A stretch of DNA of 64,000 nt from assembly GCF_907163125.1 (NCBI RefSeq), contig NZ_OU015319.1:496001-560000 (forward strand), read 5' to 3'. The notes under the pieces are model-generated. The model was not told the origin of the DNA. It ran no database searches and worked only from the letters and a program-made list of their open reading frames with translations. Positions 26,308 through 43,184 of this stretch are shown here, piece by piece. The position numbers and the translations under genes are program-made. The first letter of the stretch is position 1, and the number at the start of each line of letters is the position of its first letter. Origin of the DNA: Cloacibacterium caeni. Lineage in GTDB: Bacteria; Bacteroidota; Bacteroidia; Flavobacteriales; Weeksellaceae.

Positions 26308-27156
26308 ATGCAAAATGTAGCATTTATCATCAATCCTTTTTCTGCAAAGAAAAATTATCAGCCTTTTCTTAATTCTTTACAAGCAAAGGTTGAAAATCCG
26401 TTGTATTTAATTTCAAAATCCATTCAAGATACTGAAAATTTCATCAAAGAAAATTTTGAAAAAGTAGACATTTTCGTTGCCATTGGTGGTGATGGAACCA
26501 TTTCTACGGTTGCGAAAAATTTAATTCACACGGATAAAATTCTCGGGATTTTCCCAGCAGGAAGTGGTAACGGTTTCTCTAATGAAACCAAGTTTTCTGA
26601 AAATTTAGACGAACTTTTAGCGAAAATTCAAAAGAAAAATTTTAAAGAAATTGATACGTTTACAGTAAACGAAAGATTTTCGATTAATGTAGCTGGAGTA
26701 GGATTTGATGGAGCGGTTATTGAAGCTTTTGAGAAAACTTCCAGAGGTTTTAAAAATTATATCAAAACTTCTATCCAGACTTTTTTTAAATACCAACCAA
26801 TTTCCATCAAATTCGAAGAAAAATATAAAAAATTTGACGGAAAATATTTGATGCTCAACGTTGCAAACACGCGACAATTCGGAAATAATGCCTACATTGC
26901 TCCTCATGCAAGTAAAAGTGATGGCTTGTTAGAAATTGCTTTGGTAAAGAAGTTTCCTTTCACTCATTCTGGCGTTTTTGCCTACAGAATGTTTACCAAA
27001 AAATTGGTTTCCAATCAGTACATTCATTATTTATCGGTTCCAGAAATTGAGTTTTCTGTAGATTCAGATTTGTGGCATCTCGACGGCGAGTTTAACCAAA
27101 TTTCATCTCCAGTTAAAGTAAAAGTGCTCCCAAAAAGTTTAAGAATTTTAGTCTAA
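26308..27156 (+). CDS. Diacylglycerol/sphingosine kinase-like lipid kinase
   Basis: A 282-residue protein of the DagK/YegS lipid kinase family. Features seen are FIINPFSAKKNYQPF at the start, the nucleotide-binding GGDGTIS near residue 60, GIFPAGSGNGFSNE near 78, and the C-terminal LWHLDGEFNQI. Such enzymes phosphorylate diacylglycerol or related lipids on the inner membrane face. The exact lipid is unknown. Its 3' end overlaps the convergent photolyase gene by 9 bp. Confidence 0.9.
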   Translation: MQNVAFIINPFSAKKNYQPFLNSLQAKVENPLYLISKSIQDTENFIKENFEKVDIFVAIGGDGTISTVAKNLIHTDKILGIFPAGSGNGFSNETKFSENLDELLAKIQKKNFKEIDTFTVNERFSINVAGVGFDGAVIEAFEKTSRGFKNYIKTSIQTFFKYQPISIKFEEKYKKFDGKYLMLNVANTRQFGNNAYIAPHASKSDGLLEIALVKKFPFTHSGVFAYRMFTKKLVSNQYIHYLSVPEIEFSVDSDLWHLDGEFNQISSPVKVKVLPKSLRILV

Positions 27157-28452
27157 ATTATCTAGAGCTTCTTTGTACACTTTCAGTACTTTTTCTCTGG
27201 CTTTTTTATGCTCTACGATAGGTTTTGGATAGTATTTCGTTCCAAATTCAGGAATCCATTTTTTAATATATTTAAAATCAGGATCGAATTTTTTCTGTTG
27301 TTCCTCTGGATTAAAAATTCTAAAATATGGAGCGGCATCACAACCAGAACTTGCGCACCATTGCCAGTTTCCATTATTCGCACTTAAATCGTAATCCATT
27401 AATTTTTCCGCAAAGTAAGCTTCGCCAATTCGCCAGTCGGTAAGCAAATGTTTGATGAGGAAACTCGCTGTAATCATTCTCACTCTATTGTGCATAAAAC
27501 CAGTAGTATTCAGTTCACGCATTCCCGCATCTACAAGAGGAAATCCTGTTTTTCCAGCTTTCCATTTTTCTAGAAATTCAGGATTATTTTCCCAGGGAAT
27601 CGCATCATATTTTGACTTGAAAGAATGATTGACCACTTTCGGAAAATGATACAAAATCTGCATGAAAAATTCTCTCCAAATCAATTCTTTCAAGAAAGTA
27701 AGGTTATTTTCTTTGGCAATTTTGGCTAATTTTCTCACGCTAATGGTTCCAAATCTCAGATGAACACCCAGTTGTGTAGTTCCTTTTACCGCAGGGAAAT
27801 TTCGAGTTTCTTCATAGGTTTTGATGATATGAAGATCTGCTTCTGGAACTTCAAATGTTAAATCTGTTTTTTGAAAACCAATATCTTCAATTTTGAACTC
27901 CTCAAAAGGAATTTCTAATAAATGATCTAGTTTTTTTTCTGATGGAAATCCTTGTAAATCAAATTTTTGAAATTCATTGAGCCAAAGTTTTGAATATGGA
28001 GTATAAACTGTGTAAGGTTTTTTATCGGCTTTTACAATTTCGTCTTTGTGAAAGATAACTTGGTCTTTAAATGGGTGAAAAGCGATATTTTTTGAAGCCA
28101 AAAAATCGGCAATTTCTTGGTCTCTTTTTATTGCGTAAGGTTCATAATCTTCATTGCAATAAACGGTTTCTATTTCATAGTTTTCAGTGAGTTTTTTATA
28201 AATTTCAAGAGGTTTTCCTTTGAAGATTTTGATGCCTTTATTCTTTGATTTTAGAAAAGAATTTAGGGTTTGTAAAGCATGTACAATGAAATCAACTCTC
28301 TTATCCGACTTATTTTCTAATAAATCTAAAATATCTTCGTCAAAAATAAAAATCGGCAGAACCTTTTTTCCCGATTCTAATGCTTGATATAATCCGTGAT
28401 TGTCTTTTAAACGAAGGTCTCGTCTGAACCAAAAAATAGATATTTTATCCAT
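27148..28452 (-). CDS. phr: Class I deoxyribodipyrimidine photolyase
   Basis: A 434-residue CPD photolyase of the cryptochrome/photolyase family. It uses blue light and FADH- to split cyclobutane pyrimidine dimers. The N-terminal antenna domain opens ISIFWFRRDLRLKDNHGL. The FAD-binding domain has LIWREFFMQILYHFP, TGFPLVDAGMRELNTTGF, NRVRMITASFLIKHLLTDWR and NNGNWQWCASSGCDAAPYFR. The second antenna dye cannot be told from sequence. It is the last gene of the minus-strand repair operon, 2 bp after the MarR gene. It is the only photolyase of the three that looks fully standard. Confidence 0.93.
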   Translation of the reverse strand: MDKISIFWFRRDLRLKDNHGLYQALESGKKVLPIFIFDEDILDLLENKSDKRVDFIVHALQTLNSFLKSKNKGIKIFKGKPLEIYKKLTENYEIETVYCNEDYEPYAIKRDQEIADFLASKNIAFHPFKDQVIFHKDEIVKADKKPYTVYTPYSKLWLNEFQKFDLQGFPSEKKLDHLLEIPFEEFKIEDIGFQKTDLTFEVPEADLHIIKTYEETRNFPAVKGTTQLGVHLRFGTISVRKLAKIAKENNLTFLKELIWREFFMQILYHFPKVVNHSFKSKYDAIPWENNPEFLEKWKAGKTGFPLVDAGMRELNTTGFMHNRVRMITASFLIKHLLTDWRIGEAYFAEKLMDYDLSANNGNWQWCASSGCDAAPYFRIFNPEEQQKKFDPDFKYIKKWIPEFGTKYYPKPIVEHKKAREKVLKVYKEALDNLD

Positions 28453-28454
28453 GC

Positions 28455-29102
28455 TTATTCTATCAAATGAAGGAGTTCTTTAATCTCAGAATTTTTGTGT
28501 TCTGTGTACAAAGTGTAATGAAAATCATTTACTTTTTTCAGTAATTCCAGCAATTTTGTTTTTTCATCATTTTTAAGGTTTGCCGAAAGAATTTTAGAAG
28601 TCGTATTGACTTTTTCTACCGATTGATGGAAGGCTTCTTCTCCTTTTTTGGTCAAAGTCAATCTTTTGGCACGTTTGTCATTTTCATCAACGGTTTCTTG
28701 AATCAAACCATCGTCTAGAAGTCTTTTGATGATTTGAATTCCCGTTTGTTTTTCGTGACCGTTTCTTTCGATGAGTTGCATTTTGGTCAAAGAAGGCTCA
28801 TCTTTGAGTCTATACAAATAAGTGAATTCTTCGTTCGCTAAAGTCGGAAAATCGCTTAAACCTTTGCGAATCATTTGTTTAGAGAATCTGCCCAAAAGCA
28901 AAACCTGTTTGCAAATTTCATTTTCGGTGAAACTTACTTCGTGGTTTTCATTTTTAAAAAGTTTGGTCGGACTTTCCGTAGTATATTTTTTTTCGTTGAG
29001 CCAAATTCTGAAATCTTCTATCGTAGCATGATTTTTAAACGATTTAGAATGTTCGTATTCCTGAACTTCTAAAAGGAGATTAATTAAAAAACTGGTTTCC
29101 AT
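28455..29102 (-). CDS. MarR family transcriptional regulator
   Basis: A 215-residue winged helix-turn-helix regulator, longer than the usual 140-160 because of an N-terminal extension of about 60 residues that includes IEDFRIWLNEKKYTTES. The DNA-binding part shows LTKMQLIERNGHEKQTGIQII (reader helix region, shown in part) and the wing DENDKRAKRLTLTKKGEE. MarR proteins repress nearby genes and are released by small ligands or oxidants. It lies between the SDR (5 bp) and the photolyase (2 bp) and may act on this operon in addition to the TetR protein at its head. Confidence 0.85.
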   Translation of the reverse strand: METSFLINLLLEVQEYEHSKSFKNHATIEDFRIWLNEKKYTTESPTKLFKNENHEVSFTENEICKQVLLLGRFSKQMIRKGLSDFPTLANEEFTYLYRLKDEPSLTKMQLIERNGHEKQTGIQIIKRLLDDGLIQETVDENDKRAKRLTLTKKGEEAFHQSVEKVNTTSKILSANLKNDEKTKLLELLKKVNDFHYTLYTEHKNSEIKELLHLIE

Positions 29103-29107: not shown

Positions 29108-29806
29108 TTATAATTTAATAGTACTCATTCCTCCGTCAATGCCAAAAATCTGTCCGGTAATCCAAGAAGAAGAATCAGAAAGTAAAAATACAACCATTTT
29201 TGCAATTTCTTCAGGATTTCCTATTTTCTGAAGCGGATGTCTTTTCGCAGCGGCTTCTCTTTTCTCTGGCGATGCCAATAAAGCAGTGGCTAAATTGGTG
29301 TCTGAAAGTGACGGCGCAATAGCGTTAAATCTTATTTTCTGTAGCGAAAATTCTGCCGCTAAACTTTTTACCAAACCTTCTACAGCGCTTTTACTAGCAG
29401 CGATAGAAGAATGAAAAGGCATCCCTAATTTTGCTGCAATGGTGCTGAATAGAACCACACTTGCACTGTCAGATTTTTTAAGATTTGGCAATAATTTCTG
29501 AATGATTTTAATAGCTCCCAAAACGTTAATTTCAAAGTCTTTTTTAAAATCTTCGTCAGATAATCTTCCGAAAGGTTTTAGGTTAATGCTTCCTGGTGCA
29601 TAAACCAATCCATCAATTTTTTCAGGAAAAGAAACGTCATCCAAACTGTCTGTTAAAATATCTTTTTGATAAAAATGAAGTTTTACATTATTCAATTCTG
29701 GAGTTTCTGTTCTAGAAATTCCGATGATTTGAGCTTGGTTTTGTAATTGTTTTGCGGTGGCTAAACCTATTCCGCTTCCACAACCGATGATGACTATATT
29801 TTTCAT
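29108..29806 (-). CDS. SDR oxidoreductase lacking catalytic Tyr
   Basis: A 232-residue short-chain dehydrogenase with the Rossmann motif GCGSGIG at residues 8-14 and the C-terminal SSWITGQIFGIDGGMS. The catalytic Ser (S121 in LFSTIAA) and Lys (K139) are present, but the YxxxK Tyr is replaced: SSIAASKSAVEG has I135. Dehydrogenase chemistry is therefore doubtful; it could bind a nucleotide or a partner only, or use another acid. It is in the photorepair operon, 77 bp after the TIGR03643 gene and 5 bp before marR. The gap upstream holds a satellite-like tract. Confidence 0.85.
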   Translation of the reverse strand: MKNIVIIGCGSGIGLATAKQLQNQAQIIGISRTETPELNNVKLHFYQKDILTDSLDDVSFPEKIDGLVYAPGSINLKPFGRLSDEDFKKDFEINVLGAIKIIQKLLPNLKKSDSASVVLFSTIAAKLGMPFHSSIAASKSAVEGLVKSLAAEFSLQKIRFNAIAPSLSDTNLATALLASPEKREAAAKRHPLQKIGNPEEIAKMVVFLLSDSSSWITGQIFGIDGGMSTIKL

Positions 29807-29883: not shown

Positions 29884-30168
29884 TTATCTCTTTGATATTT
29901 TATTTAAACTTATGGTTCTCTGTCTGGTACATTTAAATCTCTCAATTTCTGGATTTCTTTTTTTGAGATGTTTTTGACTAATGCCAGAATTCACTCTTTT
30001 TCTCCAAAGATTGAAGGAACTTCTTTTCAGTTCAGTTCTCATAATAGCGATGGTTTCAGCTTCAGAAATCCCAAACTGAAAAGTGATGGCTTCAAATGGC
30101 GTTCTGTCTTCCCATGCCATTTCTATAATTCTGTCGATTTGTTCTACACTAAGATTTTTTTTCGTCAT
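29884..30168 (-). CDS. TIGR03643 (DUF2805) family protein
   Basis: A 94-residue protein of the TIGR03643 family. The N-terminal half is a small helix-turn-helix-like domain (IDRIIEMAWEDRTPFEAI, then FGISEAETIAIMR); the C-terminal half is strongly basic (LWRKRVNSG, KHLKKR, KCTRQRT), as would suit binding to nucleic acid. The family is typically found beside cryptochrome/photolyase genes and has no proven function. It overlaps the photolyase gene at 30165 by 4 bp, so it is translationally coupled to it. A DNA-binding helper role is inference. Confidence 0.85.
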   Translation of the reverse strand: MTKKNLSVEQIDRIIEMAWEDRTPFEAITFQFGISEAETIAIMRTELKRSSFNLWRKRVNSGISQKHLKKRNPEIERFKCTRQRTISLNKISKR

Positions 30169-31646
30169 TGGTCTAATTTTTCTAAAAAGTTTTGAACTCT
30201 CACGAGATGTAATTCTTTTTGCTGTTCCGTCATTTTATTCCAAGTGATAAGCATCATGCTCAATCTTGGAGTTTTTCTAAAAAATTCTTGATTTTTAGCA
30301 ATAAAATTCCAAAAAAGGGAATCCCAAATTTCTCCCCAATTTTCGGTTGAATAATCACTCATTTTTTTGAGATAATTGCTTCCGCTGATATACGGTTTTG
30401 TGCTCATCAATCCGCCATCAGCAAACAAACTCATGCCATACACATTAGGAACCATCACCCAATCATACGCATCAATGAACATCTCCATAAACCATTGATA
30501 GACGTCATCTGGATGAAATTCACACAAATTCATAAAATTGGCAAGAATCATCAGTCGTTCAATGTGATGAGCGTAACCTGTTTTCAATATTTTTTTAATG
30601 GTTTTGTCAATCGGAGCAATTCCTGTAGTTCCATCGTAAAAAGATTTTGGAATTTTTCTTTGATGATTCCAAAAATTTCGGGTTCTTTCGAAACTTCCTT
30701 TGTACAAATAGATTCCTCGAATAAATTCTCGCCAACCTAAAATCTGACGAACGAATCCTTCTAATGAATTGAGCGGAATTTCATTTTTTTGAGCAAATTC
30801 TATGGATTTTTCGATGATGTAATTTGGGGTTAAAAAGCCAATGTTCATCAATGGAGACAGCACGCTGTGATGCAAAAAATGCTCATGCTCTACGATGCTG
30901 TCTTCATAAATTCCAAATTCCAAAAATCTATTTTCCAAGAAATTTTCAAGCCAAATTTCCGCTTCTGAATAGGTAATTGGATAGATTTGATAATCTGTTA
31001 ATTCCCCGTAATGATTTCCGAAATTTTCAGAAACATAAACTTTCGCTTCTTTGTAAAAACGGTTATTCTGAGGAAATGAAATAGAAGGCGATTTTTTATT
31101 TTTTGGATATTTTTTTCGGTTTTCTGTATCGAAAGTCCATTTTTCGCCAATTGGTTTTCCATTTTCTAAAAGTATATTTCTAGAAATCCGCTGTTGCTTG
31201 TAAAAATCGGTTTGATGATAATGCTTTTTTCCTTCAAAATATACTTTTAAATCTTCTTTTGAATTGATAAAACTTGGGTTTTCAATAATCTCAACTTCTA
31301 GTTTTGTCTTTAAAATTCTCTTTTCCAACCAATCGTCACAAACATCTATGATTTTGATTTTTTCAAAACCTTCTTGTTCTAAAAATGGAATTAAATTTCG
31401 AATGTCTGAAAGCTGCGAAATGCTTTCTATATAATGAACTTGGAATCCTTTTTCGAGTAAAAAGTTTTCATAGAATTTCATCGTAGCTCTATGAAATGCT
31501 AATTTCTGTTGGTGAAATGTATACTGTTTGAAAAACAAAAATTCTTCCACTAAAAACATAGGAATTTCCTTTTCAAGAAAAGAAATCTCTTGAAATAACT
31601 GATTCGGAAATATCAATTGTGCCGTTTTTAGTGGTTTTTCAGCCAT
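30165..31646 (-). CDS. FeS-BCP-like cryptochrome/photolyase without Fe-S cysteines
   Basis: A 493-residue member of the PhrB/CryB group (bacterial (6-4) photolyase, FeS-BCP). Recognisable parts are LIFPNQLF at the start, QILGWREFIRGIYLY, AHHIERLMILANFMNLCE, and WVMVPNVYGMSLFADGGL with TKPYISGSNYL. In known members four cysteines near the C-terminal FAD domain bind a 4Fe-4S cluster. Here the whole protein has only two Cys (C103 and C375), and the region after the SNYLKKMSDY motif reads STENWGEIWDS. The cluster should be absent. Its start overlaps the cry-DASH remnant by 19 bp. Confidence 0.88.
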   Translation of the reverse strand: MAEKPLKTAQLIFPNQLFQEISFLEKEIPMFLVEEFLFFKQYTFHQQKLAFHRATMKFYENFLLEKGFQVHYIESISQLSDIRNLIPFLEQEGFEKIKIIDVCDDWLEKRILKTKLEVEIIENPSFINSKEDLKVYFEGKKHYHQTDFYKQQRISRNILLENGKPIGEKWTFDTENRKKYPKNKKSPSISFPQNNRFYKEAKVYVSENFGNHYGELTDYQIYPITYSEAEIWLENFLENRFLEFGIYEDSIVEHEHFLHHSVLSPLMNIGFLTPNYIIEKSIEFAQKNEIPLNSLEGFVRQILGWREFIRGIYLYKGSFERTRNFWNHQRKIPKSFYDGTTGIAPIDKTIKKILKTGYAHHIERLMILANFMNLCEFHPDDVYQWFMEMFIDAYDWVMVPNVYGMSLFADGGLMSTKPYISGSNYLKKMSDYSTENWGEIWDSLFWNFIAKNQEFFRKTPRLSMMLITWNKMTEQQKELHLVRVQNFLEKLDQ

Positions 31647-32134
31647 AAATTTCTAAATTTTTTATCGCTATCGTATTGTTCTGCTTGTTTTTCTGTGTTG
31701 AAACTTCTGTCTCGTGCATCATTCCCAATTCCAGCCAAATACAACCAGTTTCCGTAATTGCTGTGAACATCATAATCGATGAGCATTTGCTCGAAATATG
31801 CAGCGCCAATTCGCCAATCTAGTTTCAGATTTTTACAGAAATAAGAAGCTACATTTTGTCTTCCTCGATTGCTCATGAAACCCGTTTTTTGGAGTTCAAT
31901 CATGTTGGCATTCACAAATTCTGAGTGCGTTTTTCCAGAAACCCACTGTTCTAATTTTTTAGGATTATTCTGAAATTCTACATTTTTATGGGATTGAAGT
32001 CCGTTTTTGTAAAAAATTTCGTTGTGGTGTTGCAAAGCAATAAATTTGAAATAATCTCGCCACAGCAATTCGAAAATCAACCAATACGTAGATTCATTGG
32101 CTCCGAATTTTTGTTCAAATTTTTTCACTTCATC
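31628..32134 (-). pseudogene. Cry-DASH, C-terminal fragment cut by IS1380
   Basis: The 168-codon C-terminal part of a DASH-type cryptochrome/photolyase. It has WLIFELLWRDYFKF, FMSNRGRQNVASYFCKN, DWRIGAAYFE and the DASH hallmark NYGNWLYLAGIGNDARD. Upstream it runs straight into the insertion sequence; a GTG at 32128 could start a fragment but would lack the antenna domain. It is the 3' piece of the gene whose 5' piece lies at 33538-34332. Confidence 0.93.
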
Positions 32135-32139
32135 ATAAA
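32135..32139. repeat. Target site duplication ATAAA (left)
   Basis: ATAAA flanks the IS1380-family element on the left and recurs at 33538-33542 on the right. Confidence 0.9.
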
Positions 32140-33537
32140 CCCAAATTCCGCAATAGAAAAAAAAGAGTATTTTAGTATTCTAATATCCAACTGCGTAGCA
32201 GTAGAAAAAAATAAGCGATGAAATTCGAGCTATCCTTTACCAATAAAGAGATTACGCCTTGGGGAGGCATGGTGTTTTTAAAGCAAATGTTGGACAAAAT
32301 CGGCTTTAGAGAGCAAATTGAAAAATGCGAATCTTTACCTGTGTCACTTTCCAATAATTCTTATAAAAAAGAAGTTTTGCTTGAATCTTTTATTACGAGT
32401 ATTTGGTGTGGTGCCAATCGTTTTTTGCACACAGAAATTACCCGTGCAGATAAGGCTCTTGGGGAAATATTTGACTGGCGAAAGACCCCTGCTCAGGACG
32501 CATATAAACGCTATTTTGGCAAGTTTACACAACACATCAACCAGCAAGTTGGGCATTATTTTTTCAGTTGGTTTTTTCAGAATTTGAACCTCAATTATTT
32601 TACGTTAGACATTGATTCATCTGTAATTACTCGATACGGAGAGCAAGAGGGAGCAAAAAAAGGCTACAATCCTAAGAAAAAAGGAAGAAACAGCCATCAT
32701 CCTATCATTGCATTTGTGAACGATGTAAAGATGGTCGCTAATTTTTGGCTCAGGAGCGGCAATACTTCTTCGGCAAATAATTTTGTAGGATTTTTAGAAG
32801 AAACACTCTTAAATTTTGGGGATAAGAAAGTAGGATTAGTTCGTTTGGATAGTGGTTTTTTCCAGAAAGACATTATGGATTATCTTGAATTAAAAACACT
32901 CCAATACATCATCGCTGCAAAATTTACTCACCCCATTCAACACTTGATAGACCAGCAAGATTTTTGGATAAAAGTTGATGAGGGCATCGAAATTTGCGAC
33001 AAATATTATCAAGCAAAAAACTGGGAAAAGCCAAGAAGGATAGTCATTGTAAGGCAAAAAATAGCACAACGGCCGAATGCGGCAGGCCGAATATTAAGCC
33101 TGTTTCCGGAAGATGAAATCCATAGAAATTATCGCTATTCAGCCTATATTACCAACCAAGAACAATCGGCAACAGATGTTTGGAGAACGTACCGAAACAG
33201 AGGCGATGCAGAGAATCGAATCAAGGAATTAAAGGCAGATTTTGGAGCCGAAAGTTTTAACCTTAAAGGCTTTTTCCCTACAGAAGCTGCACTTATATTT
33301 TCGATGATTGCTTATAATCTGATGTCAATTTTCAGACTGTTTGTTCTTCAGGAAAAAACGCAGAAAACATTATCTACACTACGATATAGAACCTTTGCTA
33401 TTGGAGCTTATTTTGAAAAAGTAGGTGACACACTCAAACTGAAGATTGCACTCACCAAAAAACGCAGAAAATGGTTCGTCGGAATTTGGGATTACCCCAT
33501 AGACTTATCTCAAAAAATTTCAACTGCGTGATTTGGG
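32140..33537 (+). mobile_element. IS1380-family insertion sequence (1398 bp)
   Basis: A complete element bounded by inverted repeats CCCAAATTCCGCA (left, 32140) and, read inward from 33537, CCCAAATCACGCA. A 5-bp target duplication ATAAA flanks it (32135-32139 and 33538-33542). It holds one transposase gene on the plus strand and lies in the cry-DASH gene, which is read from the minus strand. The exact duplication and intact transposase suggest a recent insertion. Confidence 0.95.
32218..33531 (+). CDS. IS1380 family transposase
   Basis: A 437-residue DDE transposase of the IS1380 group. The first catalytic Asp is in TLDIDSSVITRYG, followed by the family-typical KGYNPKKKGRNSHHPII. The second is in LVRLDSGFFQKDI, and the Glu is in YRNRGDAENRIKELKADFG. 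The length is normal and no frame break is visible. Its stop codon TGA runs into the right inverted repeat. The gene is antisense to the surrounding repair operon. Confidence 0.93.
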   Translation: MKFELSFTNKEITPWGGMVFLKQMLDKIGFREQIEKCESLPVSLSNNSYKKEVLLESFITSIWCGANRFLHTEITRADKALGEIFDWRKTPAQDAYKRYFGKFTQHINQQVGHYFFSWFFQNLNLNYFTLDIDSSVITRYGEQEGAKKGYNPKKKGRNSHHPIIAFVNDVKMVANFWLRSGNTSSANNFVGFLEETLLNFGDKKVGLVRLDSGFFQKDIMDYLELKTLQYIIAAKFTHPIQHLIDQQDFWIKVDEGIEICDKYYQAKNWEKPRRIVIVRQKIAQRPNAAGRILSLFPEDEIHRNYRYSAYITNQEQSATDVWRTYRNRGDAENRIKELKADFGAESFNLKGFFPTEAALIFSMIAYNLMSIFRLFVLQEKTQKTLSTLRYRTFAIGAYFEKVGDTLKLKIALTKKRRKWFVGIWDYPIDLSQKISTA

Positions 33538-36417: not shown

Positions 36418-36513
36418 ATTTGAATTTTTTTAAATCGGTTTGTATTCCTTTAATAATGAGTTTTTTTGAATTAATTTCTATTAATTGATACATTCAATAG
36501 AATTTATTGATGA

Positions 36514-36521
36514 CAAAAATA
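36514..36521 (-). promoter_or_regulatory. -7 element of tetR/repair operon (TATTTTTG)
   Basis: TATTTTTG on the minus strand. Its last five bases are inside the 24-bp palindrome. It predicts a leader of about 90 bases before the tetR ATG at 36417. Confidence 0.6.
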
Positions 36522-36540
36522 GTAAAATATTTTACTATTT
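36517..36540. promoter_or_regulatory. Perfect 24-bp palindrome, putative TetR operator
   Basis: The half-site AAATAGTAAAAT is followed by its exact reverse complement. The palindrome overlaps the -7 element of the tetR promoter and covers the -33 region of the carotenoid promoter, whose -7 starts at 36555. Size and position are those expected of a TetR-dimer operator controlling both directions. Binding by the TetR protein encoded next to it is inference. Confidence 0.75.
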
Positions 36541-36554
36541 AACAAAATAAAGTA

Positions 36555-36562
36555 TAAATTTG
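36555..36562 (+). promoter_or_regulatory. -7 element of ribA-crt operon (TAAATTTG)
   Basis: TAAATTTG lies 15 bp after the palindrome and 31 bp before the ribA ATG. It is the only good promoter seen for the eight-gene plus-strand operon. Confidence 0.6.
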
Positions 36563-36593
36563 TACAATAATTATGATTTAAAAAATAGATAAT

Positions 36594-37196
36594 ATGATCA
36601 AGATACAAGCAGAATCAAAATTGCCTACAGATTTTGGGAATTTCAAAATTGTAGCGTTTTCAGAATCACAAGAAGATTGGATGCCGCACATTGCATTAAT
36701 CTCTGAAAACACAGATTTTAACGGAGTGGTAAACGTAAGAATTCATTCAGAATGTATTACGGGAGAGATTTTTCATTCTCAAAAATGCGAGTGTGGTCAA
36801 CAATTAGACGCATCTATGAAATATATAGATGAAAATGGAGGAATTATTTTATATCTTCGTCAGGAAGGTAGAAATATTGGGATTATCAATAAAATAAAGG
36901 CTTATCAGTTGCAAGAATTGGGACTTGATACGGTAGAAGCTAATCTTCAGTTGGGTTTACCAGCAGATGATAGAGATTTTAATGTAGCGATAGAAATTCT
37001 TAATATATTAGGCGTTAAAAAAATCAATCTTTTAACGAATAATCCCGAAAAATTAAGTTTTGTGGAAAACAGTAATATTCAATTAGTTAAAAGAATTCCA
37101 CTGAATATTAAGGCTAATCATATCAATAAATCATATTTAGAAACCAAAAAAACTTATTTTGGACATCAATTAGAAGAAGCATTATCATCAATATAA
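36594..37196 (+). CDS. ribA: GTP cyclohydrolase II
   Basis: A 200-residue stand-alone GTP cyclohydrolase II, the first enzyme of riboflavin synthesis. Zinc ligands are in HSECITGEIFHSQKCEC; the substrate site YLRQEGRNIGI and DTVEANLQLG follow, then LLTNNPEK. The usual His of DTVEANHQLG is Leu here. The DHBP synthase half of fused RibBA is absent. It is the first gene of the carotenoid operon, 14 bp before crtI. A role in feeding FAD/FMN demand of the photolyases made in the divergent operon is inference. Confidence 0.92.
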   Translation: MIKIQAESKLPTDFGNFKIVAFSESQEDWMPHIALISENTDFNGVVNVRIHSECITGEIFHSQKCECGQQLDASMKYIDENGGIILYLRQEGRNIGIINKIKAYQLQELGLDTVEANLQLGLPADDRDFNVAIEILNILGVKKINLLTNNPEKLSFVENSNIQLVKRIPLNIKANHINKSYLETKKTYFGHQLEEALSSI

Positions 37197-37210: not shown

Positions 37211-38665
37211 TTGAAAACAACAGTAATTATTGGTTCCGGATTTTCTTCGCTAGCTTCTGCTTGTTATATGGCAAAAGCGGGTTACAAAGTGACGGTTTTA
37301 GAAAAAAATGAACAATTAGGAGGAAGAGCTTCCATGATGGAAATTGATGGCTATAAGTTTGATATGGGCCCAAGTTGGTATTGGATGCCAGATATTTTCG
37401 AGAGATTTTTTGCAGATTTTGGTAAAAAAGTTTCAGATTATTATAAGCTAGAAAAACTTTCGCCAGCTTATAGAGTGGTTTTTGGTGAAAATGATTACAT
37501 CGACATCGAAGATACTCCAGAAAAAATCATTGCAACTTTCGAAAGAATAGAACCAGGCAGCGGAAAACATCTGAAAAAATTCATGGATGAAGCTCAAGAA
37601 AACTACCGAATTGCGATGCAGGATTTGGTGTATAATCCAGGTTTATCATTGCTAGAATTGGTTTCTGTAGAAAGTGCAAAAAGACTAAATTTATTTGTCA
37701 AAAATATTTCTGAGCAAGTAAGAAAGGAAATTAAAAATCCTAAATTGAGAAGTATTTTAGAATTTCCTGTATTATTTTTAGGGGCAAAACCGAATAAAAC
37801 TCCTGCTTTCTACAACTTTATGAATCACGCAGATTTCGGGTTGGGAACTTGGTATCCGAAAGGAGGTTTCAATGCGGTTGCTGTTGGAATGGTAAAATTG
37901 GCGAAAGAATTAGGTGTGCAATTTAAAGTAAATGAAGAAGTTACAGCAATTGAATATTCAAATAGTCAAGCTAAAAAAATAAAAACCAACAACGGAATTT
38001 ACGAAGCAGATATTTTCATTTCGGGAGCAGATTACGCTCACACCGAAAAACTTTTAAACGGAAACCGAAATTACAGTGAAGAATATTGGCAAAAGAAAAC
38101 CTTTGCGCCGAGTTCTTTCTTATATTATGTAGCTTTTAACAGAAAAGTGAACCATCTTTTGCATCATAATTTGTTCTTTGATACAGATTTTGAAGCGCAT
38201 GCAAAAGAAATTTATGATACCAAAGAATTACCAAAACAACCTTTGTTTTATGCTAATTTTTCGAGCAAAACAGATGATTCTCTTTGTGAAGAAGGTAAGG
38301 AAGTTGGATTTTTCCTTATTCCAGTTGCGGTTGATTTAGAAGACAACGAAGAAATTCACGAAAAATATTTCCAATTGATTCTCGATAGAATTAAAAAATG
38401 TACGGGAGAAGATTTAAGTGATGCCATAGTTTTCAAAAAATCATTCGGTGTAAAAGATTTCAAAGAGCGTTATCATTCTTGTAGAGGAAACGCTTATGGT
38501 TTGGCAAATACTTTATTGCAAACCTCGGTTTTAAGACCAACGATTAAGAATAAAAAATTGAAAAATTTCTTTTATACAGGGCAATTAACTGTTCCAGGAC
38601 CTGGAGTTCCGCCTGCATTAATTTCTGGAAAAGTAGTGACAGATTATATTCTAAAGAACAATTAA
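37211..38665 (+). CDS. crtI: Phytoene desaturase
   Basis: A 484-residue FAD-dependent CrtI that turns phytoene into lycopene. The N-terminal dinucleotide fold shows IIGSGFSSLASACYMAKAGY and LEKNEQLGGRA; the C-terminal signature is YTGQLTVPGPGVPPALISG. The start codon is TTG (37211); no ATG occurs early enough to replace it. It is membrane-associated in this family. Downstream, CrtB is 52 bp away. Confidence 0.95.
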   Translation: MKTTVIIGSGFSSLASACYMAKAGYKVTVLEKNEQLGGRASMMEIDGYKFDMGPSWYWMPDIFERFFADFGKKVSDYYKLEKLSPAYRVVFGENDYIDIEDTPEKIIATFERIEPGSGKHLKKFMDEAQENYRIAMQDLVYNPGLSLLELVSVESAKRLNLFVKNISEQVRKEIKNPKLRSILEFPVLFLGAKPNKTPAFYNFMNHADFGLGTWYPKGGFNAVAVGMVKLAKELGVQFKVNEEVTAIEYSNSQAKKIKTNNGIYEADIFISGADYAHTEKLLNGNRNYSEEYWQKKTFAPSSFLYYVAFNRKVNHLLHHNLFFDTDFEAHAKEIYDTKELPKQPLFYANFSSKTDDSLCEEGKEVGFFLIPVAVDLEDNEEIHEKYFQLILDRIKKCTGEDLSDAIVFKKSFGVKDFKERYHSCRGNAYGLANTLLQTSVLRPTIKNKKLKNFFYTGQLTVPGPGVPPALISGKVVTDYILKNN

Positions 38666-38717: not shown

Positions 38718-39566
38718 ATGAATAATTTTCAAATTTTTAATCACATTTCTGGATTAACCTCGAAAATGGTTACCGAAAAATACAGCACTTCGTTTTCTAG
38801 AGCTTCTACTTTGTTTAAGCCAGAAATTCGTCAGCATATTTATAATATTTATGGTTTCGTGCGTTTTGCAGACGAGATTGTAGATACTTTTCATGATTAT
38901 GACAAAGCAAAATTGCTAGATGAGTTCGAGAAAAACTACAGAGATGCACTGGAAAATGGTATTTCTCTCAATCCTATTCTTCATTCTTTTTGTACTACTC
39001 AGAGAGAGAAAAATATTCCTCAACACTTGGTAGATGCGTTTTTGCATTCTATGAGAATGGATTTGGGTGATATCAAGGATTTAAATGACGAAAAATACAA
39101 TGAATATATCTACGGAAGTGCAGAAGTAGTTGGTTTAATGTGTTTGAAAGTATTTGTAGATGGCAATGAAGAAGAATATCAAAAACTGAAACCTTATGCA
39201 CAAAGTTTAGGAGCGGCGTTCCAAAAAATCAACTTTTTAAGAGATATTTCTGCAGATTATACAGATTTAGGAAGAACTTATTTTCCAAATGTGAATTTCA
39301 GAAATTTTTCTCAACAGGATAAATTAGAAATAGAAAAAGACATTGCTAAAGATTTTGAACATTCTTTAATCGGGATTAAAATGTTGCCGATGTCTTCTAG
39401 ATTAGCGGTTTTTATGGCGTATAAATACTACACGAATTTATTCAAGAAAATTAAAAAATGTAAGCCAGAAATATTGATGCACAAAAGAATCAGTGTTTCT
39501 AATGCTAGAAAAGTTTATCTTTTCGGAGAGATGATTTTGTTTAAAAATCTTAACTTCGTAAGATAA
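38718..39566 (+). CDS. crtB: Phytoene synthase
   Basis: A 282-residue squalene/phytoene synthase family enzyme that condenses two geranylgeranyl diphosphates to phytoene. Aspartate-rich motifs are FADEIVDTF (about residue 52) and INFLRDISADYTDLGRTYFP (about residue 172), both needed for Mg2+ and diphosphate binding. The gene for the GGPP synthase is not in the window; idi (56617) provides precursor isomerisation elsewhere. Confidence 0.94.
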   Translation: MNNFQIFNHISGLTSKMVTEKYSTSFSRASTLFKPEIRQHIYNIYGFVRFADEIVDTFHDYDKAKLLDEFEKNYRDALENGISLNPILHSFCTTQREKNIPQHLVDAFLHSMRMDLGDIKDLNDEKYNEYIYGSAEVVGLMCLKVFVDGNEEEYQKLKPYAQSLGAAFQKINFLRDISADYTDLGRTYFPNVNFRNFSQQDKLEIEKDIAKDFEHSLIGIKMLPMSSRLAVFMAYKYYTNLFKKIKKCKPEILMHKRISVSNARKVYLFGEMILFKNLNFVR

Positions 39567-39577: not shown

Positions 39578-40033
39578 ATGAAAAAGTTAGTTCTTGTATT
39601 TTTATTGTTTTGCAGTTTCGTGAATGCGCAAAGTTTAGTAGAGTTAAGAGGTTACCTTCAAAAAGGAGAAAACTCAGAAGAAGTAAGTAAAACACTTATT
39701 TCAAAATCTAAAAATGCTTATGATACAACTAAAAAGCCTATTTATATGGCATTTTATGCGGTAGGTAATTTTTTTATGGCAAAACACGCATCTAATCCTT
39801 TGAATAAATATTCTTATTTCAATAAAGGGAAAAAGTTGCTTGAAGATGCAATTAAAAAAGAGCCCAACAATATAGAAATCAGATTAATGAGATTAATTTC
39901 TCAAGAAAAAACACCAAGTTTTTTGGGTTACAATAAAAATATAGAAGCAGACCGAAATTTCATTATTAAGAACTATAAAAATTCAGATGATGAAAATCTA
40001 GTGAAATTCATTAAAAACTATCTAAAAATCTAA
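39578..40033 (+). CDS. Exported protein within carotenoid operon
   Basis: A 151-residue protein with a signal peptide (MKKLVLVFLLFCSFVNA|Q). The mature part is helical, with tetratricopeptide-like spacing (AFYAVGNFFMAKHAS, LLEDAIKKEPNNIEIRLMRL). I do not recognise a named family. It lies 11 bp after crtB and 9 bp before crtZ, so it is an integral part of the operon. An envelope role with the membrane pigment is possible but not shown. Confidence 0.75.
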   Translation: MKKLVLVFLLFCSFVNAQSLVELRGYLQKGENSEEVSKTLISKSKNAYDTTKKPIYMAFYAVGNFFMAKHASNPLNKYSYFNKGKKLLEDAIKKEPNNIEIRLMRLISQEKTPSFLGYNKNIEADRNFIIKNYKNSDDENLVKFIKNYLKI

Positions 40034-40042: not shown

Positions 40043-40513
40043 ATGGAAGCATTACAATATTTTTTCATCACATTAGGCGTTTTCGTTGCCATGGAAGGCA
40101 TTACTTGGCTCACGCACAAGTATATTATGCATGGTTTAGGTTGGTATTTTCACGAAGATCACCACCAACCAGGTTATCCTCATGTTTTTGAAAAAAATGA
40201 TTTCTTTTTTGTGATTTTTGCAATTCCTAGTATTCTGTTATTCTATTTCGGAACGGTAAATGGAATCAACTATCTTTTTTTCATAGGACTAGGGATTTTA
40301 CTGTACGGAATGGCTTATTTTTTAGTGCATGATGTTCTCATTCACAGACGTTTTAAATGGTTTGATAAAACCAATAACTGGTATTTACGTGGATTGAGAA
40401 AAGCGCACAAAATGCACCATAAACATCTTGGGAAAGAAGAAGGAGAGTGTTTCGGAATGCTTTTCGTGCCTTTGAAATATTTCAGAGAAGCTATGAATTC
40501 AAAAATGGCATAG
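40043..40513 (+). CDS. crtZ: Beta-carotene hydroxylase
   Basis: A 156-residue CrtZ-type di-iron membrane hydroxylase, which adds 3-hydroxyl groups to beta-carotene to give zeaxanthin. The eight-plus His motifs are THKYIMH, HEDHH, HDVLIH and HKMHHKH, separated by three to four hydrophobic helices. Length and motif spacing match bacterial CrtZ. It sits between the exported unknown protein and the lycopene cyclase. Confidence 0.93.
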   Translation: MEALQYFFITLGVFVAMEGITWLTHKYIMHGLGWYFHEDHHQPGYPHVFEKNDFFFVIFAIPSILLFYFGTVNGINYLFFIGLGILLYGMAYFLVHDVLIHRRFKWFDKTNNWYLRGLRKAHKMHHKHLGKEEGECFGMLFVPLKYFREAMNSKMA

Positions 40514-40535: not shown

Positions 40536-41255
40536 TTGCAACATTATTATTACATAGCTCTAGATATCTTGAGTTTCAGCATTCCTTTTATATTCAGTTT
40601 TGAGAAAAAATGGATGAATTTTATCCGTTTTTGGCAGCCTTATTTTTTGGCAATCATTACGGTGGGAATTTTCTTTATTCTATGGGATATTTATTTTGCT
40701 TACCAAAATGTTTGGGGTTTTAATGACGAATACTTAATGGGAATCAGATGGTTTAAATTGCCACTCGAAGAATGGTTATTTTTCTTGCTCATTCCATATT
40801 CCAGCAATTTTATTCACTATTCTTTAGAATATTTCTTCCCGAAATTGCAGTTGCCCAAAAAATTGACACAATGGATTTCTGTTCTTCTATTAATCGTAAG
40901 CGCAAGTGTTTTTGTCACCAATTTAGATAGAATTTACACCGCAGCAAGTTTTGGTTTGTTTGCATTATTGATGATTTTTCAAATATTTTACCAATGGGAA
41001 TATGCACGAAAGTTTTACATCAGTTTTGTGCTGATTTATGTGCCGTTTTTCTTTGTTAATTCCGCTTTGACGGGAAGTTATTCAGAAAATCCAGTGGTTT
41101 TTTATGACAACAATGAAAACCTAGGAATCAGAGTGGGAACCATGCCTTTAGAAGACAGTTTTTACTGTTTTTCGATGCTTTACGGAAGTGTTTTATTGTT
41201 TGAATATTTTAGAAGAAAATGGAACTATTCTCTATCAATGTCTGTAAAATCTTAA
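40536..41255 (+). CDS. Lycopene cyclase (CrtYc/Yd-type fusion)
   Basis: A 239-residue membrane protein with two copies of the lycopene-cyclase domain that are separate subunits (CrtYc, CrtYd) in Gram-positive bacteria. Both copies show the PxEE/PLED pattern: PLEEWLFFLLIPYSSNF and PLEDSFYCFSMLYGS. About six or seven helices are predicted by eye. It converts lycopene to beta-carotene. The start codon is TTG. It is unrelated to the flavoprotein CrtY. Confidence 0.9.
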   Translation: MQHYYYIALDILSFSIPFIFSFEKKWMNFIRFWQPYFLAIITVGIFFILWDIYFAYQNVWGFNDEYLMGIRWFKLPLEEWLFFLLIPYSSNFIHYSLEYFFPKLQLPKKLTQWISVLLLIVSASVFVTNLDRIYTAASFGLFALLMIFQIFYQWEYARKFYISFVLIYVPFFFVNSALTGSYSENPVVFYDNNENLGIRVGTMPLEDSFYCFSMLYGSVLLFEYFRRKWNYSLSMSVKS

Positions 41256-41274
41256 TTTAAAATAAATTTCAAAG

Positions 41275-41760
41275 ATGAAAATCAATATAAAAAAGCAGTC
41301 AGGAATTTATACACTTACTTCGGAACAGATTCTTCCTATTTCTTTAGAAAAAGCTTGGGAATTTTTTACCCATCCTAATAATTTAGACAGAATTACACCG
41401 AAAGAAATGCAGTTTGAAATCACCAATAATCCACCAGATAAAACGTATCTTGGTCAAATTATTACCTATAAAATAGGAATTTTACCAATGGTAAAAAGCA
41501 ATTGGATTACAGAAATTACGCATTTCGAAGACCAAAAATTTTTCGTAGATGAACAGCGTTTTGGACCTTATGCAATGTGGCATCACGAACACCATTTCGA
41601 AGCTACAGAAGATGGAAAAGTGAAAATGACGGATATTGTCAATTTCAAACTTCCTCTTGGAGTTTTTGGAGATTTATTGGCAGGTTTTTATGTGAAAAAT
41701 AAAGTGAAATTTATTTTTGAAAGTCGTTTTAAAATTTTAGAAGAAATCTTTAAATCATGA
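41275..41760 (+). CDS. SRPBCC family protein
   Basis: A 161-residue START/Bet v1-like domain protein of the polyketide-cyclase/ligand-binding group. Visible are PISLEKAWEFFTHPNNLDRI, FGPYAMWHHEHHFEA and MTDIVNFKLPLGVFG. These proteins bind hydrophobic ligands in a cavity. In photolyase-carotenoid islands of other bacteria it recurs next to the SDR-DUF2867 gene, which it overlaps here by 4 bp. A role with a pigment or a lipid is inference. Confidence 0.85.
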   Translation: MKINIKKQSGIYTLTSEQILPISLEKAWEFFTHPNNLDRITPKEMQFEITNNPPDKTYLGQIITYKIGILPMVKSNWITEITHFEDQKFFVDEQRFGPYAMWHHEHHFEATEDGKVKMTDIVNFKLPLGVFGDLLAGFYVKNKVKFIFESRFKILEEIFKS

Positions 41761-43184
41761 AAATTTTTCTTACAGGAGCCACAGGTTATATCGGGAAAAG
41801 ACTTCTCATTCAGTTGTTAGAAGAAGGTCATGATGTGGTGTGTTCTGTAAGAGACCAAAAAAGATTAAGCCTTAAACTCTATCAAAATCATCTTGAAAAA
41901 ATTCAAATCATAGAAAATGATTTTCTAGATGAAAATTCTTTACAAAATATTCCACAAGATATAGATTTTGCTTATTATCTGGTGCATTCTATGTCTTCTG
42001 GTAGTGGAAATTTCTCAGAAAAAGAGAAAATTTCTGCCGAAAATTTCAGAAAAGCATTAGAAAAAACTTCAGTAAAGCAAGTCGTTTTCCTCACTGGAAT
42101 TATCAATGAAGAAAAACTTTCAGAACATCTTCAGTCTAGAAAAAATGTAGAGCAAGCCTTGAAAAGTGATAAATACGCTTTAACCTGTCTCAGAGCTGGA
42201 ATTATCGTAGGTTCTGGTAGTGCTTCTTTTGAAATTATCAGAGATTTGGTAGAAAAACTGCCGATTATGGTGGCTCCTAAATGGTTGAAAACAAAATGTC
42301 AACCGATTGCCATCAGAAATGTGATTCAGTTTTTAACCAAAGTTATCGGTGTAGAAAAAACCTACAATCAAAACTACGATATTGCAAGTCAAGATGTTCT
42401 TACTTACAAAGAAATGTTGTTGCAATACGCCGAAGTGAGAGGTCTGAAACGGTGGATTTTCACTGTTCCAGTAATGACGCCTAAATTGTCTTCGTATTGG
42501 TTATACTTTATTACTTCTACCACCTATTCTTTGGCGGTGAATTTGGTAGACAGCATGAAAATAGATGTCATTGCAAGACAAAATTCTTTGGCTTCGGACT
42601 TAGGAATTCATTTATTTTCTTACAAAGAAGCAATTAACATGGCTTTTGACAAAATCAAGCAAAATGACGTGTTAAGTAGTTGGTATGATTCTTTTACCAA
42701 TCAGTTTCACAAGCGAAATGTTTGGCAATATTTAGAAGTTCCAGAGAAAGGTTGTTTTACAGATTTCAGAATTATGAAAGTAGACAATGAGGAATTGGCG
42801 TTGGAGAGAGTTTTCAGTATTGGTGGAAAAACAGGTTGGTATTACGCTAATTTTCTTTGGAAAATCAGAGGTTTTTTAGATAAATTAATCGGTGGAGTAG
42901 GATTAAGAAGAGGCAGAAGAAATCAAAACGAATTAGAAGCAGGAGATTCTGTAGATTTTTGGCGCGTTTTATATGCCAACAAAGAAGAAAAACGCCTTTT
43001 ACTCTTCGCCGAAATGAAAGTTCCTGGCGAAGCTTGGTTAGAATTTTACATTAAAAATGGAGAGTTGTACCAAGAAGCAACTTTCCGACCACTAGGTTTA
43101 TCAGGAAGGTTGTATTGGTACTCAGTTTTACCATTCCACGGTTTAATTTTCAATGGAATGCTTCGTAAATTAGCTGGGAAATAA
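41757..43184 (+). CDS. SDR with C-terminal DUF2867
   Basis: A 475-residue two-domain protein. Residues 1 to about 300 are an NAD(P)-binding NmrA/atypical SDR domain opening KIFLTGATGYIGKRLLIQLL. The C-terminal 150 residues match DUF2867, a START-like ligand-binding domain (GCFTDFRIMKVDNEELAL, then LGLSGRLYWYSVLPFHG). It overlaps the stand-alone SRPBCC gene by 4 bp and ends the operon. The reaction is unknown; quinone or pigment reduction has been suggested only by context. Confidence 0.86.
   Translation: MKIFLTGATGYIGKRLLIQLLEEGHDVVCSVRDQKRLSLKLYQNHLEKIQIIENDFLDENSLQNIPQDIDFAYYLVHSMSSGSGNFSEKEKISAENFRKALEKTSVKQVVFLTGIINEEKLSEHLQSRKNVEQALKSDKYALTCLRAGIIVGSGSASFEIIRDLVEKLPIMVAPKWLKTKCQPIAIRNVIQFLTKVIGVEKTYNQNYDIASQDVLTYKEMLLQYAEVRGLKRWIFTVPVMTPKLSSYWLYFITSTTYSLAVNLVDSMKIDVIARQNSLASDLGIHLFSYKEAINMAFDKIKQNDVLSSWYDSFTNQFHKRNVWQYLEVPEKGCFTDFRIMKVDNEELALERVFSIGGKTGWYYANFLWKIRGFLDKLIGGVGLRRGRRNQNELEAGDSVDFWRVLYANKEEKRLLLFAEMKVPGEAWLEFYIKNGELYQEATFRPLGLSGRLYWYSVLPFHGLIFNGMLRKLAGK

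What the first reader, a model, noticed from the sequence alone, without database searches (positions are those of the whole stretch)
27148..43184. Photoprotection island: photorepair and carotenoid operons share one control region
Nine minus-strand genes (TetR, ABC1 kinase, DUF2256, cry-DASH, FeS-BCP-like photolyase, TIGR03643, SDR, MarR, CPD photolyase) diverge from eight plus-strand genes (ribA, crtI, crtB, unknown exported, crtZ, lycopene cyclase, SRPBCC, SDR-DUF2867). Gaps are mostly under 20 bp, so each side looks like one operon. No B12-type light sensor (LitR/CarH) is present, so the light or oxidant signal must come another way. DUF2256, TIGR03643, ABC1 kinase, SRPBCC and the SDRs lack known roles in photoprotection, which makes the group a candidate multi-protein system.
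Basis: partly seen in the sequence, partly recalled or inferred. Interest (0 to 1): 0.75.

Follow-up and report, generated by a model that had tools for sequence, protein, structure and literature searches.

The report
Light-damage gene island, one gene broken
This stretch holds a conserved pair of back-to-back gene sets for repairing light-damaged DNA and making protective pigment, joined by one switch region with two matching protein-binding sites, but in this strain a jumping gene has cut one of the repair genes in half.

Summary
The gene list is right, with one large miss: a 1,398-bp IS1380-family element (32140-33537, 5-bp duplication, 9 copies in the genome) splits cry-DASH and interrupts the minus operon; no other cry-DASH was found in the genome. 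The organism is a Cloacibacterium. The island is real and old: four of six relatives in the genus keep it whole, and 16 of 16 Kaistella loci keep most of both operons and both flanking genes. The 176-bp region between the operons holds twin palindromic sites (AGTA-N8-TACT) 30 bp apart, found in 69 of 128 distinct promoters against 4 of 2,560 shuffles. No CarH/LitR was found genome-wide. In Flavobacteriaceae the same cluster instead carries a TGTTTAA-N16-TTAAACA dyad that tracks CarH-like genes (141 of 183 against 10 of 112 genomes), not TetR. So control was probably swapped when CarH was lost. The likeliest new repressor is the operon's own MarR; the 'TetR' is the rival, and it looks partly COQ9-like beside a COQ8-family kinase. 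The 'FeS-BCP' lacks the four Fe-S cysteines. Chryseobacterium lacus, a relative, induces a crt cluster of this gene order by light without car/lit genes, so the question is testable.

The parts
27148..28452 (-). class I CPD photolyase (phr)
   Evidence: Pfam PF03441 1.7e-74 and PF00875; best solved-structure hits are annotated DNA/deoxyribodipyrimidine photolyases
28455..29102 (-). MarR-family regulator with about 85-residue N-terminal extension; best candidate for the operator-binding repressor
   Evidence: PF12802 2.5e-8; co-occurrence with the twin sites
29108..29806 (-). short-chain dehydrogenase
   Evidence: PF13561 8.4e-43
29884..30168 (-). TIGR03643/DUF2805, small protein with predicted HTH-like core
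   Evidence: TIGR03643 109.9 bits, cut-off 66.55; AlphaFold model pLDDT 79.9, pTM 0.57; fold hits only at E>1, many of them HTH domains
30165..31646 (-). DPRP-family photolyase, homologue of FeS-BCP (6-4) photolyases but without the four cluster cysteines
   Evidence: PF04244 2.6e-50; PhrB/CryB/CryPro hits 4e-78 to 1.6e-68; cysteine check
31628..32128 (-). cry-DASH, C-terminal half (disrupted)
   Evidence: TIGR02765 positions 266-430
32135..32139 (.). 5-bp target site duplication, copy 1
32140..33537 (+). IS1380-family insertion sequence, 1398 bp, imperfect terminal inverted repeats; transposase 32218-33531
   Evidence: NF033539 5e-72; nine copies in genome; ends by comparison of copies
33538..33542 (.). 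5-bp target site duplication, copy 2
33543..34332 (-). cry-DASH, N-terminal half (disrupted); the reading frame listed runs on into the IS to 33520
   Evidence: TIGR02765 positions 1-264
34284..34439 (-). DUF2256 small Cys-rich protein
   Evidence: PF10013 2.3e-21
34432..35757 (-). ABC1/UbiB/COQ8-family atypical kinase
   Evidence: PF03109 1.7e-56; bacterial ABC1 and COQ8A/COQ8B structures among the hits
35761..36417 (-). TetR-fold protein, TetR_C_23; no TetR_N HTH match
   Evidence: PF17931 4.3e-30; TetR_N reported for 0 of 50 homologues; AlphaFold pLDDT 87.1
36418..36593 (.). shared control region between the two operons
36521..36536 (.). operator O1 AGTAAAATATTTTACT, core of a perfect 24-bp palindrome 36517-36540; abuts a TAnnTTTG element reading toward tetR
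36551..36566 (.). operator O2 AGTATAAATTTGTACA, 30 bp from O1; overlaps a TAnnTTTG element reading toward ribA
36594..37196 (+). ribA, GTP cyclohydrolase II
   Evidence: PF00925 1e-57; TIGR00505 over cut-off
37211..38665 (+). crtI-type desaturase
   Evidence: NF058655 706.6 bits, cut-off 640
38718..39566 (+). crtB phytoene synthase
   Evidence: PF00494 6.2e-43; NCBIfam CrtB models below their cut-offs
39578..40033 (+). unknown exported protein of carotenoid operons
   Evidence: no family match; found in 9 loci of the 11 with crtI (counts) and 17 of 17 crtI-bearing loci
40043..40513 (+). crtZ hydroxylase (FA_hydroxylase)
   Evidence: PF04116 1.4e-10
40536..41255 (+). lycopene cyclase
   Evidence: PF18916 3.6e-35; TIGR03462 82.3 bits, cut-off 39.4
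41275..41760 (+). SRPBCC-like protein
41757..43184 (+). SDR with DUF2867 domain
   Evidence: PF11066 4.4e-33

Best explanation
This is the Cloacibacterium copy of an old Weeksellaceae photoprotection island: a photorepair operon and a flavin/carotenoid operon transcribed away from each other from one 176-bp region. Shown by sequence: two palindromic sites (AGTA-N8-TACT) 30 bp apart, one beside each presumed start signal, conserved in many relatives. Inferred: a dimeric repressor binds both sites in the dark or unstressed state, shuts both operons together and represses its own gene; light or a photo-oxidation product releases it. The most likely repressor is the MarR encoded in the photorepair operon, working like the light-dependent MarR repressor CrtR of Corynebacterium; the divergent 'TetR' is the main rival. 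ribA plausibly supplies flavin for the photolyases. Inferred history: in Flavobacteriaceae the same cluster carries a box that tracks the B12 photoreceptor CarH; Weeksellaceae lost CarH and its box and use this operator pair instead. In this strain an IS1380 element has destroyed cry-DASH and may weaken expression of everything downstream, including marR and phr.
For: Island whole in 4 of 6 genus relatives; most of both operons with both flanking genes in 16 of 16 Kaistella loci. Twin sites at 30-bp spacing in 69 of 128 promoters distinct in their first 100 bases, 4 of 2,560 shuffles; 38 of 40 rows (window and 39 loci; L060 left out). CarH not found genome-wide. The dyad tracks MerR-B12 genes, 141/183 v 10/112 genomes, p about 1e-32, and not TetR (odds 1.1), and lies within 0.8 kb of that gene in 22 of 32 genomes for which both places were printed. 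Dyad (28) and twin sites (69) never coincide in the 128 promoters. For MarR: pair in 57 of 70 TetR+MarR+ promoters but 6 of 44 TetR+ promoters without MarR in the locus; pair kept in five genomes with no TetR hit, G048, G154, G179 (MarR beside crtI), G221, G276; an AGTA-N8-TACT site precedes a separate MarR-crtI operon in C. shigense and a close MarR in C. carnipullorum (read by eye). Precedent: CrtR (PMC6739363, abstract and passages). Light-induced crtI-crtB-hyp-crtZ-cyclase in C. lacus without car/lit genes (PMC7064467, abstract and passages).
Against: MarR presence is confounded with phylogeny. Only 3 of 10 promoters with MarR but no TetR in the locus keep the strict pair; 13 of 70 promoters with both regulators fail it; one counted pair (L056) is in a doubtful register. 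C. cheonjiense (L052) has the sites with no MarR in the 19.5 kb read. L141 has a MarR-crtI operon without the site. O2 contains a promoter element, so part of its conservation may be promoter conservation. In C. lacus only 11 genes changed with light; the 8 induced were four crt genes, two in or beside that cluster and two of unknown function, so the passages I saw name no photolyase or regulator among them: this speaks against joint light control of both operons, if that strain has this island, which I could not inspect. No expression or binding data exist for this strain; light as signal and polarity of the IS are not shown.
Confidence: 0.48

Rival explanations
1. The divergently encoded TetR-fold protein itself binds O1 and O2 and represses both operons and itself; its ligand is a lipid or photo-oxidation product.
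For: Divergent position: of 40 family loci the next detected gene is ribA in 32 and crtI in 4; two operators at the two promoters fit classic autoregulation; the profile's best solved-structure hits are FadR-type TetR repressors over the N-terminal part, E 7e-4; HTH helix 29-35 is fairly conserved, mean top frequency 0.71.
Against: TetR_N reported for 0 of 50 members at E<=10 (the program's filters drop most weak matches); HTH region net acidic, median -2, range -5 to 2; orthologues in Flavobacteriaceae lack these sites; sites persist in five genomes without a TetR hit.
Confidence: 0.28
2. The 'TetR' is not a repressor: it is a COQ9-like lipid-binding protein that works with the COQ8-family ABC1 kinase next to it, handling isoprenoid lipids (carotenoid or menaquinone) under light stress, while MarR does the switching.
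For: ABC1 is the nearest detected neighbour in 40/40, 80/80 and 20/20 loci with TetR, sets partly overlapping; Foldseek hits to human COQ9, apo and isoprene-bound, TMq 0.53-0.56; PF08511 COQ9 is the second most frequent Pfam match, 29 of 50 members at E<=10, best 0.002; ABC1 matches COQ8A/COQ8B structures at 4e-20 to 3e-25; the last two helices and helix 80-97 are the most conserved parts.
Against: For the window protein PF08511 scores 11.9 bits, cut-off 20.5; a profile search of solved structures lists ten sequences, all named as transcriptional or fatty-acid regulators, and no COQ9; Foldseek ranks TetR regulators first and no hit passes E 0.001; the ABC1 is closer to bacterial ABC1 structures than to COQ8; in some loci a gap of about 500 bp separates the two genes.
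Confidence: 0.22
3. The minus and plus operons are merely neighbours in a gene-dense region with constitutive promoters; the palindromes are promoter conservation.
For: O2 overlaps a TAnnTTTG promoter element; single-site matches are not enriched in the own genome, 58 against 51 control matches; in C. lacus the named light-induced genes are crt genes only.
Against: O1 is conserved beyond the promoter element and the 30-bp spacing recurs; 69 of 128 promoters against 4 of 2,560 shuffles; a CarH-tracking box sits at the tetR promoter in relatives.
Confidence: 0.12

Closest known systems
LitR/CarH-controlled light-response clusters (MerR-B12 photoreceptor with phr and crt genes; general description recalled)
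   Same: photolyase and carotenoid genes gathered under one control; flavobacterial versions of this same cluster carry a box that tracks CarH-like genes
   Different: no MerR-B12 gene found in this genome; a different, twin palindromic operator; MarR/TetR-type regulators instead
CrtR-crt cluster of Corynebacterium glutamicum (PMC6739363, abstract and passages)
   Same: MarR-family repressor, light-dependent carotenoid operon, operator region between divergent promoters, no B12 sensor
   Different: MarR is not the first divergent gene here but the second-last gene of the opposite operon; [quoted passage not shown] clear twin palindromes, while the CrtR authors found no inverted repeats
Chryseobacterium lacus YLOS41 crt cluster (PMC7064467, abstract and passages)
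   Same: gene order crtI-crtB-hypothetical-crtZ-cyclase, light-induced, no car or lit operon found by its authors
   Different: its upstream genes were not in the passages seen and its genome could not be inspected; the gene after the cyclase is described there as a lipocalin/outer membrane lipoprotein
Photolyase gene-proximity cluster of marine Flavobacteriia (PMC5932025, passages)
   Same: photolyase and photolyase-related genes reported as neighbours, enriched in proteorhodopsin-bearing genomes
   Different: no regulator, operator or carotenoid link in the passages seen
FeS-BCP (6-4) photolyases PhrB/CryB/CryPro
   Same: 30165-31646 is a homologue over nearly its full length
   Different: the four cluster cysteines are missing here and in all 55 Weeksellaceae-type sequences read (window included); all 12 flavobacterial ones read keep the four-cysteine spacing
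COQ9 and COQ8 of ubiquinone biosynthesis
   Same: a TetR-fold protein with weak COQ9 signal beside an ABC1-family kinase
   Different: below Pfam's COQ9 cut-off; profile search favours TetR regulators

Membership tests
LitR/CarH light-response cluster | MerR-B12 photoreceptor gene in cluster or genome | tested here: not met
   PF02310 only in 715-, 910- and 1166-aa frames; Lutibacter CarH-like protein finds nothing in G000 at E<=1e-10
LitR/CarH light-response cluster | CarH-tracking box at the promoter | tested here: not met
   0 exact TGTTTAA-N16-TTAAACA matches in G000
LitR/CarH light-response cluster | photolyase and carotenoid genes together | tested here: met
CrtR-like MarR-controlled carotenoid cluster | MarR-family gene linked to crt genes, with palindromic sites at the crt promoter | tested here: met
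CrtR-like MarR-controlled carotenoid cluster | MarR binds the operator and light releases it | not testable with these tools
   needs EMSA and light/dark expression
FeS-BCP photolyase | homology to PhrB/CryB over nearly full length | tested here: met
   E 4e-78 to 1.6e-68
FeS-BCP photolyase | four cysteines for the 4Fe-4S cluster (role recalled) | tested here: not met
   only C103 and C375 in the window protein
cry-DASH | one intact reading frame | tested here: not met
   IS between TIGR02765 positions 264 and 266
IS1380 family | IS1380 transposase over curated cut-off | tested here: met
   242.8 bits, cut-off 180
IS1380 family | terminal inverted repeats and target duplication | tested here: met
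   imperfect repeats at both ends, 5-bp duplication
TetR/AcrR repressors | N-terminal TetR_N helix-turn-helix | tested here: inconclusive
   TetR_N reported for 0 of 50 members, yet the profile aligns to FadR N-termini at 7e-4 and the model has helices at 29-35 and 40-44
COQ9 | PF08511 over cut-off | tested here: not met
   11.9 bits, cut-off 20.5, window protein
COQ9 | TetR fold | tested here: met
   fold hits to TetR regulators and COQ9, best E 3.8e-3

The most novel reading that the evidence does not exclude
In Bacteroidota a COQ9-like/COQ8-like pair (the so-called TetR plus ABC1 kinase) is the constant core of a light-damage island, not its switch. Its switch was exchanged during evolution: CarH with its TGTTTAA-N16-TTAAACA box in Flavobacteriaceae, a MarR with twin AGTA-N8-TACT operators in Weeksellaceae. 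This MarR is the missing light-linked regulator of species such as Chryseobacterium lacus.
Probability: 0.17. Interest if true: 0.8.

Novelty: new variant of a known kind. Interest (0 to 1): 0.6.

Why it matters
Light-induced carotenoid synthesis without car/lit genes was reported in Chryseobacterium lacus, whose authors suggest a new regulator (PMC7064467, passages). This island offers named candidates (MarR, then TetR), exact operator sequences and a natural set of genomes lacking one or the other, so the question becomes a gel-shift and two gene deletions. The dyad that tracks CarH-like genes gives a handle on light control across Bacteroidota. Photolyases of the FeS-BCP type without cluster cysteines raise the question whether the iron-sulphur cluster is needed in this enzyme class.

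Tried and rejected
Regulon search. The full 24-bp palindrome has one further place in the genome at 3 mismatches, against one in the reversed control. The single-site pattern in the own genome gave 58 matches against 51 control matches. The stricter O2 pattern gave one match in each of 62 of 296 family genomes, 2 in the reversed control: 43 beside tetR, 2 at ribA in genomes without tetR, 17 elsewhere. The 17 exceed that control, but the pattern contains a promoter element; of the 10 off-locus places inspected, 2 are the ribA ones and the other 8 showed no common target, apart from two genomes that share nearly the same place. No wider regulon is claimed.

TetR as owner of the flavobacterial dyad: rejected, the dyad tracks MerR-B12 genes.

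DUF2256 and TIGR03643 as strict partners of cry-DASH/DPRP: rejected on 8 Kaistella genomes with both small proteins and a single PF03441 match; caveat: DPRP proteins score close to the PF03441 cut-off and could be missed.

DUF2805 fold: only E>1 hits; no function claimed.

Literature: DUF2256 with photolyase, TIGR03643, and FeS-BCP with DASH and carotenoid gave no paper; TetR/carotenoid/photolyase/Bacteroidetes gave 10 papers, seen only as a listing; the last combined search gave none. The library is open-licence only, so absence from print is not shown.


Full report
WHAT IS THERE. The window is bases 496001-560000 of a single-contig 2.98-Mb genome. A same-genus genome (G010) has a contig of the same length as Cloacibacterium rupense NZ_BMLV01000001.1 (922,888 bases), with the same locus, so the organism is a Cloacibacterium.

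THE MISSED INSERTION. Between the two parts of cry-DASH lies an IS1380-family transposase on the plus strand. Comparing copies set the element at 32140-33537, with imperfect inverted ends and a 5-bp duplication. The genome has nine copies, seven matching the query protein at the top score and two slightly below. With the flanks joined, L041, L043 and L044 align over 800 bp without a gap, and L045 without a gap around the site. PF03441 finds only the CPD photolyase, the cry-DASH C-half and DPRP in the genome. Among the seven genomes of the genus read, cry-DASH is uninterrupted in four, absent together with DPRP in two (L042, L046) and IS-split here. Hence 'one operon' on the minus side fits the lineage, not safely this strain.

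CONSERVATION. Window proteins were compared by tblastn with 40 loci of 39 genomes, chosen by hand among 102 TetR-positive of 296 family genomes, with the best 80 named loci of 499 candidates and with 20 more. The loci were fetched because they hold the TetR-fold gene. Its nearest detected neighbour on one side is ABC1 in 40/40, 80/80 and 20/20 (the sets overlap; gaps reach about 500 bp in some loci). Three Kaistella-group loci with only a TetR fragment beside crtI show no ABC1. In the 40 loci DUF2805 occurs in 38, MarR in 37 (in L056 only a 32% match), DUF2256 in 36, SDR in 35, ribA in 32, DPRP in 25, cry-DASH in 24. In 16 of 16 Kaistella loci the order DAGK-phr-MarR-SDR...ABC1-TetR / crtI-crtB-exp-crtZ...SRPBCC-SDR2-GGT holds, including both flanking genes; ribA, cry-DASH and DPRP are not there, and the cyclase was not detected in 7. 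Chryseobacterium loci mostly have ribA and the SDR there, with crt elsewhere. Flavobacteriaceae loci examined add flavin reductase, GTP cyclohydrolase I, a pterin-synthase-like gene, glutathione peroxidase and TspO.

THE CONTROL REGION. The 176 bp between the operons hold a perfect 24-bp palindrome at 36517-36540, unmatched elsewhere in the window at up to 3 mismatches, none expected. Two AGTA-N8-TACT sites 30 bp apart, with at most 2 mismatches each, stand in 38 of 40 rows (window and 39 loci, L060 left out; L056 has 31 bp, L058 one site). O2 overlaps TAAATTTG reading toward ribA and O1 abuts TATTTTTG reading toward tetR; TAnnTTTG as the Bacteroidetes -7 element is recalled. Across 128 promoters distinct in their first 100 bases the pair occurs in 69, against 4 of 2,560 shuffles: TetR+MarR+ 57/70, TetR+MarR- 6/44, TetR-MarR+ 3/10, TetR-MarR- 3/4. 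Several MarR- loci are short pieces where MarR may lie outside, and one pair (L056) is in a doubtful register.

WHICH REGULATOR. In loci L155-L190 the half-site TGTTTAA pairs with TTAAACA at one spacing (49 of 57 close pairs), and 28 of the 128 promoters carry this TGTTTAA-N16-TTAAACA dyad, none together with the twin sites. In 295 class genomes the dyad is in 141 of 183 with a CarH-like MerR-B12 protein and 10 of 112 without, and is unrelated to TetR (42 of 79 v 109 of 216). Where both places were printed it lies within 0.8 kb of that gene in 22 of 32 genomes. Lutibacter L174 has the MerR-B12 gene, the dyad and crtI in a row. G000 has neither dyad nor a CarH-like gene. The natural reading is that control was swapped. 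For MarR as the new repressor speak the co-occurrence, the persistence of the pair in G048, G154, G179, G221 and G276, which have no TetR hit, and an AGTA-N8-TACT site before a separate MarR-crtI operon in C. shigense (L049/L114) and before a close MarR in C. carnipullorum (L113, where the next gene lies beyond the locus); I read these by eye, whose own palindrome list does not name them, and L141 lacks such a site. Against it speak phylogenetic confounding and incomplete persistence (7 of 10 TetR-less MarR+ promoters fail the strict test; two of those genomes, G145 and G139, have an intact TetR elsewhere).

THE TETR-FOLD PROTEIN. TetR_N is reported for none of 50 homologues at E<=10; COQ9 is for 29, weakly. 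The HTH region is net acidic (median -2, range -5 to 2); helix 80-97 and the last two helices are the most conserved parts, with HTH helix 29-35 not far behind. The model (pLDDT 87.1) resembles TetR regulators, FadR among them, and human COQ9; the sequence profile lists only regulators, not COQ9. ABC1 is closest to bacterial ABC1 structures, then COQ8B/COQ8A. COQ8's ATPase activity and proposed metabolon role were read as passages of PMC7615680.

THE PHOTOLYASES. DPRP matches FeS-BCP structures over nearly its full length. The window protein and 54 other Weeksellaceae-type sequences (some genomes read twice; L133, L144 and L152 are Sphingobacterium or Flavobacterium records) have at most 3 cysteines and lack the four; all 12 flavobacterial ones read keep the four-cysteine spacing. 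The cysteines' role in PhrB, and ribA as a source of flavin or of the DMRL antenna, rest on recalled biochemistry.

EXPERIMENTAL ANCHOR. C. lacus YLOS41 is yellow in light and white in dark. Eight genes rose with light: crtI, crtB, crtZ and the cyclase, two in or beside that cluster (one the hypothetical gene between crtB and crtZ), and two of unknown function; its authors found no car or lit operon (PMC7064467, abstract and passages). No photolyase is named among them in what I saw, which counts against joint control if that strain has this island. Its genome was not among the loci I could identify.

VERDICT. A real, conserved island of a known general kind with a new control arrangement, one broken gene in this strain, and an unusual photolyase and TetR-fold protein worth testing.

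Noticed in passing
window 30165-31646 and orthologues: FeS-BCP-type photolyase without the four cluster cysteines in all 55 Weeksellaceae-type sequences read, while the 12 flavobacterial ones keep them.
   Followed up: partly
L259, L260 (G276, G221): Two genomes of the Chryseobacterium group (g20) lack tetR, ABC1, DUF2256 and cry-DASH between ribA and DPRP but keep the twin sites before ribA: apparently natural deletion strains.
   Followed up: partly
L293, L297, L304 (G139, G136, G161): Only fragments of the TetR-fold gene remain next to crtI in three Kaistella-group genomes, with MarR now the neighbour; G139 has an intact TetR elsewhere.
   Followed up: partly
L077 near 16399: A 99% identical copy of the window's IS transposase lies near the same island in a genome of another genus, suggesting recent spread.
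   Followed up: no
L132, L133, L144: Sphingobacterium and Flavobacterium ichthyis records carry TetR-fold proteins 60-62% identical to the window's, much closer than the 41-47% of other Flavobacteriaceae; possible horizontal transfer of the island.
   Followed up: no
window 18014-18100: Flavo-1 small RNA, Rfam RF01705, 71.8 bits.
   Followed up: no
G000:C1:6297 and 1299538: The same near-palindromic site AGTAAAATATTCTACT occurs at two distant places; context not read.
   Followed up: no
window 37211-38665: crtI passes the NCBIfam cut-off for a bifunctional phytoene desaturase/3,4-desaturase (NF058655), so the end product may not be plain zeaxanthin.
   Followed up: no
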